A stretch of DNA of 34,221 nt from Verrucomicrobiota bacterium (GTDB taxonomy: Bacteria; Verrucomicrobiota; Verrucomicrobiia; Chthoniobacterales; UBA10450): positions 1-34,221 of the forward strand of contig QHQO01000175.1 in assembly GCA_003221195.1 (NCBI GenBank), in the 5' to 3' direction. The notes beneath the pieces were generated by a model. It was given only the letters and a program-made list of their open reading frames with translations, did not search any database and was not told the DNA's origin. Numbering within the stretch: the stretch's first letter is position 1; the number at the start of each line of letters is the position of its first letter. Below are positions 32,817 through 34,221 of the stretch, piece after piece. A program made the translations under genes and the position numbers.

Positions 32817-33140
32817 ATGTCGTGCCACAGAAACGCAGATGAAAAAATCAAGGAAGCGATCGCGAAAGGAGAATTCGACAATCTTCCCGGTAAAGGCAAG
32901 CCTCTTGATTTGCGTGCCTATTTTGCCACGCCTGAACATTTAAGAATGAGTTACTCCATCCTGAAGAGCGCAGGCATTATTCCTGAAGAGATGGAACTGC
33001 TGAAACAGATTGAGGGCCTGAAAAAATCTTTGGGTTCGTGCACCAGCCAGATCGAGAAAAGAGCGATTCAAAACCAACTCTCTGAGAAAATCACAAACTT
33101 CAATTTGAGAATGGAACGATACAGGAAAGAACACAGCTAA
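32817..33140 (+). CDS. DUF1992 / DnaJC28-like conserved domain protein
   Basis: 107 residues. NADEKIKEAIAKGEFDNLPGKGKPLDL is the signature of the DUF1992 family (conserved region of DnaJ homologue subfamily C member 28), followed by helices (IIPEEMELLKQIEGLKKSL, EKRAIQNQLSEKITNFNLRMERY). Members are small helical proteins of unknown function, sometimes linked to chaperones. ATG start; the stop lies 22 nt before the first integron-like GTTAGGC. Confidence 0.8.
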   Translation: MSCHRNADEKIKEAIAKGEFDNLPGKGKPLDLRAYFATPEHLRMSYSILKSAGIIPEEMELLKQIEGLKKSLGSCTSQIEKRAIQNQLSEKITNFNLRMERYRKEHS

Positions 33141-33163
33141 CCCGGCACGGATCTTGTGTCTCG

Positions 33164-33715
33164 TTAGGCCTATGCCGCTCTGCGCCGAGAATCAACCTGC
33201 ACAATCAAATGTCTATAAAATCAATTCCTGACGGATTCCACGCCATTACTCTCTACCTATTCGCCCACGGCGCTTCGCGGGTGATTGAGTTCATCTCCGC
33301 GGCATTCGACGGCGAGCTGAGGTTCCGCGAAACCCGGCCAGATGGCGCAATCATGCATGCGACAATGCAAGTCGGAGATTCGATGCTCATGTTGGCCGAC
33401 GCCACTCCACCATTTGGACGGATGCCTGCCTCAATCTATCTCTATGTGCACGACTCCGACGCCTTTATCATTCCGCGCTTAACGCAGGCGGAGTTTCGAT
33501 TTTTCCCATCATGACGTTGCCTTCGGGTGAACGGTATGGGGGCGTCAAAGACCCGTGCGGCCAATATTTGGTGGGTGGCCACCCACGTCGAAGATGTGCC
33601 ACCCGACGAGCAGGAACGGCGCTGGAAACAATTCACAATGCCGTCGATGAACAGTGATCCGAGCAAGGCCTAACCAATCGATGAATCAACTGCCGCCCGC
33701 CGCTGAACTCAAACG
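33164..33715 (+). mobile_element. Integron-type gene cassette 1 (VOC/PhnB-like)
   Basis: Bounded on the left by GTTAGGC (33163-33169) and on the right by attC at 33668-33721, whose first box GCCTAAC is the exact complement of GTTAGGC, as expected when a circular cassette's own ends formed the site. 552 bp between the G|TT cut points, one gene filling most of it, stop codon inside the first attC box. No integrase gene is in the window, so this may be a detached attC cluster or the inner part of a longer array. Confidence 0.6.
33209..33673 (+). pseudogene. VOC-family (PhnB/glyoxalase-like) gene with two compensating frameshifts
   Basis: Frame A encodes MSIKSIPDGFHAITLYLFAH through RMPASIYLYVHDSDA (PhnB-like VOC fold: VIEFISAAFDGELRFRE, MHATMQVGDSMLMLAD). 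Near 33464 the reading shifts to frame B (YHSALNAGGVSIFPIMTLPS, GERYGGVKDPCG), and near 33562 it returns to frame A (NIWWVATHVEDVPPDEQERR, WKQFTMPS), ending at TAA 33671. Frame A alone stops at 33512. Joined, it is a normal ~155-residue VOC protein, so either a recent pseudogene or two sequencing or assembly errors. Confidence 0.8.
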
Positions 33716-33721
33716 TTAGAT
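33668..33721 (+). other. attC-like recombination site 1
   Basis: R'' box GCCTAAC (33668-33674), then CAATC, GATGAATC, a short central part, TGAACTC, AAAC and R' box GTTAGAT (33715-33721): the RYYYAAC...GTTRRRY layout of integron attC sites, with the characteristic GAACTCAAACGTTAGAT right end. 54 bp is at the short limit, and the central stem pairs only weakly. It overlaps the stop of the VOC gene and the start of the next gene. Confidence 0.6.
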
Positions 33722-34203
33722 GTCCAAGCCCGGTGAGTCAGTCGTAAGCATGGACGCAGGTAGGGCGTCGGACTGGCTGCACTTGCTCGCCTTCGGTTGC
33801 GGGTTAGCAGCTGCATCTGCCATTCTCGGAGCCGTCGTCGGTTTCATTTTTCGCGGGCGCATAGTCGCGCAGCTCATCGCAAGCGTTATCGTGAGCATTG
33901 CGTTTTTTGCAGTGCTAGAGTGGCGTCTTGGGGGTTCAGACGAGTGGTCGTGGCGTTATCCCAGTACGAGCTTGGCTTATTTGTTCGTGCCAGCCGTTTT
34001 ACTTATCGGCGCACCCACATTATTCGCAGCACTTTTGGTCGGTCGGTTGTGTATGCGACACAAAAGCATCTAACCAATCGATGAAGGTTCTTAATCAAGG
34101 AAAAAGTGTGTAGCTCCGCCGGCCCCATAAGGATCGGACATTTTTGCCGACTGGGGTTGGGAGGTGGAGCGTCTCTTCGGGCAGTCCGCGCGGTGGTGAT
34201 TAG
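33716..34203 (+). mobile_element. Integron-type gene cassette 2 (small membrane protein)
   Basis: Begins with TTAGAT of the first attC and ends at an R'' box ATCTAAC (34068-34074), the exact complement of its own GTTAGAT start. The second attC shares 16 bp (CTAACCAATCGATGAA) with the first. A third GTTAGGC follows at 34203. The single gene starts within the first site and stops within the second. Confidence 0.55.
33720..34073 (+). CDS. Small membrane protein carried in cassette 2
   Basis: 117 residues with three hydrophobic segments (~22-45, ~47-66, ~87-110), ending in a basic tail (LCMRHKSI). The ATG overlaps the R' box of attC 1 (GTTAG-ATG) and TAA lies in the R'' box of attC 2, a compact arrangement typical of cassettes. 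Two such segments are Gly/Ala-rich (FGCGLAAASAILGAVVGF). No family recognised; many cassette genes are of this kind. Confidence 0.6.
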   Translation: MSKPGESVVSMDAGRASDWLHLLAFGCGLAAASAILGAVVGFIFRGRIVAQLIASVIVSIAFFAVLEWRLGGSDEWSWRYPSTSLAYLFVPAVLLIGAPTLFAALLVGRLCMRHKSI

Positions 34204-34209
34204 TTAGGC
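34068..34209 (+). other. attC-like recombination site 2 (end assignment uncertain)
   Basis: R'' ATCTAAC at 34068-34074 followed by the same CAATCGATGAA as in site 1; the best R' is GTTAGGC at 34203-34209, preceded by GATTA, which pairs with the left AATC. The 142-bp length is at the upper limit of known attC sites, and the right half lacks the usual AACTCAA stretch, so the right border could lie elsewhere. Twelve bases of a possible third cassette remain before the window ends. Confidence 0.45.
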
Positions 34210-34221
34210 AAGCAAGGATCG

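What the first reader, a model, noticed from the sequence alone, without database searches (positions are those of the whole stretch)
33163..34209. Integron gene-cassette array (or CALIN) at the right edge
Two consecutive units begin with GTTRRRY and end with RYYYAAC boxes. Each end box is the exact complement of that unit's own start (GTTAGGC/GCCTAAC; GTTAGAT/ATCTAAC), the rule set by excision and circularisation of integron cassettes. The boxes hold the stop of one gene and the ATG of the next, and both sites share CTAACCAATCGATGAA. No integrase is visible; upstream is a chromosomal DUF1992 gene. Integron cassettes in a verrucomicrobium-like genome are worth following to the right.
Basis: partly seen in the sequence, partly recalled or inferred. 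Interest (0 to 1): 0.85.

Follow-up and report, generated by a model that had tools for sequence, protein, structure and literature searches.

The report
Cassette array broken by attC-seeking insertion sequence
The right end of this contig from a soil bacterium (Udaeobacter-type Verrucomicrobiota) holds two real integron gene cassettes, and the second cassette's recombination site is split at a fixed position by a mobile element of the RNA-guided IS110 kind that seems to have evolved integron-site targeting separately from the known ones.

Summary
The attC motif CTAACCAATCGATGAA recurs genome-wide (15 sites at up to 2 mismatches, control 1); the same MAG has an integron integrase on contig C19, an attI-like site and 23 attC-model hits. 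Window site 33668-33721 is a short, weak attC (19.1 bits). The supposed last unit is not an attC (3.2 bits): from 34086 to the contig end lies the terminus of a ~1.55-kb insertion sequence found at the same point of other attC sites, between CTAACCAATCGATG(A/C)A and GCCAACGGC. Joining the flanks of a relative's copy restores a canonical 123-bp attC. Its DEDD transposase matches IS621 in fold (16% identity) and falls outside the IS1111 references, the family of the known attC-targeting ISs. The ~375 nt behind the transposase gene predict a 73-91-nt seekRNA-like hairpin with attC-matching segments; 40%-identical relatives, in genomes without detected attC sites, lack those words. RNA guidance is inferred, not shown. 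Best call: CALIN plus a new attC-targeting lineage of the IS110 superfamily.

The parts
33135..33169 (+). Truncated attC-like remnant at the left edge of the array: AGCTAAC (33135-33141) ... TCTCGTTAGGC (33159-33169). The upstream DUF1992/DnaJC28-domain gene (32817-33140) shows no start box and is taken as chromosomal.
   Evidence: attC model 16.6 bits on the - strand; DJC28_CD Pfam match for the gene; sequence
33163..33714 (+). Cassette 1: starts GTTAGGC, carries a decayed VOC/glyoxalase-family gene (from ATG 33209, at least two frameshifts), ends GCCTAAC 33668-33674.
   Evidence: intact homologous cassette gene on C51 = L032:5418-5855(-), Pfam Glyoxalase
33668..33721 (-). attC of cassette 1 (54 bp; the folded strand is -): short, atypical, arms poorly complementary.
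   Evidence: attC model 19.1 bits, E 0.00019 in 2.2 kb but 0.27 genome-wide; DNA fold z -0.05
33715..34085 (+). Cassette 2 up to the interruption: GTTAGAT, gene 33720-34073 (117 aa, hydrophobic, no family above cut-off), R'' box ATCTAAC 34068-34074 and the spacer to 34085.
34068..34085 (+). Left half of cassette 2's attC, ATCTAACCAATCGATGAA, cut off from its right half by the insertion sequence.
   Evidence: same half site before the same IS end on C19, C232, C35 and in relatives
34086..34221 (-). Terminus (transposase-distal end, 136 of ~1550 bp) of an IS110-superfamily element; its transposase gene would lie on the - strand beyond the contig end. The GTTAGGC at 34203-34209 is part of this element.
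   Evidence: 100% identity to C19:3-126 and C51:15334-15428; C51 leads into the transposase; attC model only 3.2 bits

Best explanation
This is the edge of an integron cassette array without an integrase on its contig (CALIN), in a Udaeobacter-type Verrucomicrobiota MAG that has an integron integrase gene elsewhere. Cassette 1 holds a decayed VOC gene and a short attC; cassette 2 encodes a small hydrophobic protein. Cassette 2's attC has been split by a ~1.55-kb insertion sequence of the IS110/IS1111 superfamily, which inserts in one orientation between the R'' spacer and the L'' arm of attC. Inferred mechanism: the DEDD transposase is guided by a seekRNA/bridge-like RNA encoded just downstream of its gene; one RNA segment (ACCAAT(G)CG(A/C)TTG) matches the R'' half of attC and another (GTTTGGC) the L'' half, so the element recognises the conserved bases of many attC sites rather than one locus. 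Insertion separates R'' from the rest of attC and should lock the cassette until the IS leaves precisely. Shown: position, orientation, both junctions, restored attC, transposase family and fold, a conserved hairpin. Inferred: RNA guidance and the effect on cassette mobility.
For: Complementary boxes; motif enrichment; integron integrase on C19 and attI-like GAATTCTCGTTAG; 23 attC hits in the genome. IS: identical end on C49, C19, C51; left junctions after CTAACCANNCGNTG(A/C)A or its like in eight copies and right junctions before GC(C/T)AAC in four; L057 has both, and its joined flanks give a 123-bp attC with the canonical hairpin, z -2.3. Transposase: Pfam Transposase_20; DEDD residues and a serine invariant in 8 relatives; best PDB fold matches are IS621-bridge RNA complexes, E 1.3e-11. 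RNA: downstream non-coding region, stem closing 73-91 nt in six versions, one with changed but still pairing bases, sizes and guide order as in published IS1111 seekRNAs (PMC11187229). Host range: the five genomes with the close transposase all have attC hits; three genomes with 40% relatives have none at E 0.01 and their non-coding regions lack the attC words.
Against: No complete IS copy with both junctions in this genome: the window copy is cut by the contig end and the C51 copy lacks its transposase-side terminus. One copy (G021:C330) sits at a site without an R'' box. Guide matches are short: the 8-nt ones occur in 16-23% of shuffles, the 10-nt ones of two versions in 7 and 3 of 500. Model pTM is only 0.61. 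The window attC 33668-33721 is weak.
Confidence: 0.82

Rival explanations
1. One reading: an ordinary array whose last unit ends in a long (142-bp) attC at 34068-34209.
For: An R''-like start and a GTTAGGC at the right spacing exist.
Against: 3.2 bits against 19-78 for the others; the same DNA is a repeat that leads into a transposase; no attC-like fold.
Confidence: 0.03
2. The element is a diverged member of the known IS1111-attC group (ISKpn4, ISPst6, ISPa25, ISPa21), so attC targeting was inherited, not re-evolved.
For: Same kind of target, non-coding region downstream of tnp as in IS1111, weak terminal inverted repeats with 7- and 3-base extensions (read).
Against: The trees put it, with its 40% relatives, outside the four IS1111-type references (100/100); those relatives show no sign of attC targeting; best plasmid match 27%.
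Confidence: 0.12
3. The transposase lineage is separate but took over attC guides from an IS1111-attC element by exchange of the RNA-coding region.
For: Natural replacement of the target-detecting region is described for ISEc11/ISXne4 (PMC11187229).
Against: No similarity of the IS end to any plasmid record; the RNA stem is conserved within the present lineage.
Confidence: 0.1
4. Mis-binning or mis-assembly: the array contigs do not belong to this MAG.
For: A contig with the 100% identical transposase is filed under an Acidobacteria MAG of a soil series (L055); the MAG is fragmented (276 contigs, contamination 4.3%).
Against: The same arrangement recurs in other Verrucomicrobiota MAGs, one of them a Candidatus Udaeobacter MAG of another isolate series; it would not change what the element is.
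Confidence: 0.06

Closest known systems
Integron cassette arrays without integrase (CALIN) and chromosomal integrons
   Same: Complementary R''/R' boxes, folded attC sites, small unknown or decayed genes, integrase elsewhere in the genome
   Different: Nothing essential; only the host group and a poor first attC
IS1111-attC group (ISKpn4, ISPst6, ISPa25, ISPa21; Tetu & Holmes 2008, Post & Hall 2009, as cited in PMC11187229 and PMC11616780)
   Same: IS110-superfamily DEDD transposase, non-coding region behind the gene, one-orientation insertion at a fixed place of attC, RNA segments matching both target halves
   Different: Transposase outside the IS1111 references in the trees and only ~23% identical to an IS1111-type enzyme; target bases are those of verrucomicrobial attC; conserved S-D where IS1111/IS110 enzymes have S-G. 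Whether the insertion point is the same could not be checked
IS621 and other bridge-RNA recombinases (IS110 group)
   Same: Overall fold, DEDD residues, conserved serine, predicted RNA in a non-coding end
   Different: 16% identity; the predicted RNA lies after, not before, the transposase gene; attC as target
Group IIC-attC introns
   Same: Mobile elements that insert at attC sites
   Different: Here a DEDD transposase and no intron; from general knowledge, not tested further

Membership tests
Integron cassette array (CALIN) | Several attC sites recognised by a structure-and-sequence model | tested here: met
   23 hits in the genome, up to 78 bits; the window's own site scores 19.1 bits. The model was built here from this lineage; IntegronFinder's was not available
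Integron cassette array (CALIN) | Cassette start and own R'' box complementary | tested here: met
   Two cassettes in the window and the first cassette of C19
Integron cassette array (CALIN) | No integrase near the array | tested here: inconclusive
   None on the 34-kb contig; integrase on C19; contigs end in the IS, so linkage is unknown
IS110/IS1111 superfamily | DEDD RuvC-like domain, PF02371 domain and catalytic serine | tested here: met
   PF02371 45.4 bits; D12, E61, D99, D102, S266 invariant; IS621 fold match. NCBIfam NF033542 below its cut-off, 81.6 against 140
IS1111 family | Transposase groups with IS1111 members | tested here: not met
   Outside the clade of IS4321, IS5708 and two similar enzymes, 100/100
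IS1111 family | Longer non-coding region downstream of tnp | tested here: met
   ~375 nt after the stop codon, short leader
IS1111 family | Sub-terminal inverted repeats of 11-13 bp with 7- and 3-bp extensions | tested here: inconclusive
   TCATTAATTGGGG against TCTTAATCAAGG, imperfect; extension lengths fit if these are the repeats (read)
IS1111-attC group | Specific insertion in attC, one orientation | tested here: met
   Eight left and four right junctions; one exception at G021:C330
IS1111-attC group | Close transposase relationship to ISKpn4/ISPst6/ISPa25 | tested here: inconclusive
   Reference sequences not obtained; best of 72,556 plasmids 27%
seekRNA / bridge-RNA systems | RNA bound to the transposase and needed for targeting | not testable with these tools
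   Only a predicted hairpin and sequence matches

The most novel reading that the evidence does not exclude
A lineage of RNA-guided recombinases outside the IS1111-attC group independently acquired guides for the conserved bases of attC and lives as a parasite of a whole class of integron sites in soil Verrucomicrobiota, blocking cassette movement while inserted.
Probability: 0.65. Interest if true: 0.65.

Novelty: new variant of a known kind. Interest (0 to 1): 0.55.

Why it matters
If RNA guidance holds, attC targeting has arisen at least twice among bridge-RNA/seekRNA recombinases. The lineage offers natural guide versions with their targets, and relatives that target something else, to test how such RNAs cope with a variable, structured target family. 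It also points to a selfish element that can freeze integron cassettes in little-cultured soil bacteria, where integrons turn out to be common (37 of 83 genomes of the family).

Tried and rejected
Third attC at 34068-34209: rejected. The IS end read as a short peptide gene: dropped once it proved to be an IS terminus. DNA search of plasmids with the attC/IS end: no match. Rfam on four element loci: nothing up to E 0.5. PDB by sequence: nothing. Attempt to get an IS1111-attC reference through plasmid hits: none of the fetched elements was in an attC, and Tetu & Holmes 2008 is not held. Joining C49 directly to C19: rejected, both arrays run the same way into the IS. DUF1992 gene as a cassette: no start box upstream. 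Single-copy statistics for the guide matches: weak. Papers on integrons in Udaeobacter: none relevant.

Full report
What is in the window. The window is the whole contig C49 of a 3.1-Mb, 276-contig MAG. The shared motif CTAACCAATCGATGAA is far from chance: 15 matches with up to two mismatches in the genome against one for the reversed control. Many of these matches lead into textbook attC sites on other contigs, whose bottom strands fold into long hairpins with unpaired bases.

Integron context. The genome has an integron integrase gene (TIGR02249, 428 bits, C19:618-1520) beside an attI-like ...GAATTCTCGTTAGGC and a first cassette that obeys the complement rule. 37 of 83 genomes of the family have a TIGR02249 match at 1e-60 or better, 33 of them over the curated cut-off, so integrons are ordinary in this family; no relevant paper on integrons in Udaeobacter was found in the held library. 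A covariance model built from 12 attC sites of this genome and one relative gives 23 hits on eleven contigs of the genome. The window contributes 33668-33721 (19.1 bits, weak) and a remnant at 33135-33169 (16.6 bits); 34068-34209 scores 3.2 bits. Cassette 1 carries a broken glyoxalase-family gene whose intact homologue lies on C51; cassette 2 a 117-aa hydrophobic protein with no family above cut-off.

The insertion sequence. From 34086 on, the window equals the ends of contigs C19 and C51 (124 and 95 bp, 100%). C51 continues into an IS110-family transposase. The left junction is CTAACCANNCGNTG(A/C)A-like | GGTTCTTAATC on C49, C19, C35, C232, L052/L059, L055 and L057, and CAAACCAATCGATGAA | on C34; the right junction is ...TTAATGACGA(C/T)TCA | GC(C/T)AAC in L053, L054, L057 and L052/L059. 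L057 has both ends: the element is 1542 bp and the joined flanks make a 123-bp attC, the length of several uninterrupted ones, with the canonical hairpin (z -2.3). The L052 copy is 1573 bp. The insertion point lies between the R'' spacer and the L'' arm, and in every copy with a gene the transposase points against the cassette direction. Contigs end here because the IS is a repeat. One copy (G021:C330) sits at a site without an R'' box, and the C51 copy lacks its transposase-side terminus.

Transposase. DEDD residues and a serine are invariant over eight relatives. The AlphaFold model (pLDDT 77, pTM 0.61) has IS621-bridge RNA complexes as best matches (E 1.3e-11, 16% identity), followed by ISCro4 and TIGR-Tas proteins. 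In maximum-likelihood trees the attC-inserted enzymes group with 40-42% relatives from three other genomes of the phylum (100/100), outside the four IS1111-type references, which form their own 100/100 group. NCBIfam's IS110 model scores below its cut-off (81.6 against 140), and the best match in 72,556 plasmids is 27% identical. According to PMC11187229 the known attC-targeting elements ISKpn4, ISPst6 and ISPa25 are IS1111 family members. The present lineage therefore most likely came to attC separately, but a direct comparison with those elements could not be made here.

Predicted guide RNA. The ~375 nt behind the gene (the side typical of IS1111 elements) contain a conserved stem TACCCGG...CCGGGTG closing 73-91 nt in six versions; version D pairs with changed bases, TCCGCA/TGCGGG. 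Inside are CCCGACCAAT(G)CG(A/C)TT(G/A), matching the R'' half of attC, and CG(T/A)TTGGC, matching the L'' half, in the order reported for IS1111 seekRNAs of 82-96 nt. The 40% relatives, in genomes with no attC hit at E 0.01, lack these words. Statistics on single matches are modest: the 8-nt matches occur in 16-23% of shuffles, the 10-nt matches of versions D and E in 7 and 3 of 500. The argument rests on position, conservation and the known mechanism of the superfamily, and stays an inference.

Verdict. The more interesting object is the attC-targeting insertion sequence, a new variant of a known kind.

Noticed in passing
L026:1485-1768 (G000:C19), inside intI: The integrase gene is interrupted just before its catalytic Tyr segment by a ~284-bp insert with 12-bp terminal inverted repeats (CCCCGTGAGATA/TATCTCACGGGG) carrying a small GIY-YIG ORF (Pfam PF01541) that looks frameshifted. 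The insert's first codons read GHSPREITKTYAKV, putting a Tyr at the place of the native GHKDVSTTMIYTHV.
   Followed up: partly
L142:1335-1590 (G117:C285) and L124 reverse complement ~1265-1480 (G053:C97): Two other genera have GIY-YIG remnants with the same inverted repeat right behind an intact intI; in G117 the remnant is followed by a second copy of the intI tail KDVSTTMIYTHVLNKPGIGVKSPLD, as on C19. It may be an intI-associated homing-type element.
   Followed up: partly
L139, - strand ~1252 (G024:C63): Another stray intI tail, IYTHVLNKPGIGVKSPLD, fused to unrelated sequence beside an intact intI.
   Followed up: no
L028, reverse complement (G000:C35:4162-4092): Only the first 21 bp of the IS end remain between an attC left half and a following GCCTAACC site: scar of an IS deletion.
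   Followed up: no
L029:6900-8813 (G000:C34): A degraded IS copy (stop codon inside the transposase) after CAAACCAATCGATGAA, next to an intI N-terminal fragment and an ftsH-like gene; no proper R'' box remains.
   Followed up: partly
L055 (QIAB01000135.1): A contig with the identical transposase and its own attC array is filed under an Acidobacteria gp1 MAG from soil: mis-binning or very recent transfer.
   Followed up: no
L032:6364-6837 (G000:C51): A SET-domain gene (Pfam PF00856) lies directly beside the truncated transposase-side end of the IS, within a cassette region.
   Followed up: no
L118 / G021:C330:242-262: An IS copy in the first cassette behind attI, at a junction ending ...GTTGAGCGCA without an R'' box: off-target insertion or a damaged attC.
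   Followed up: partly
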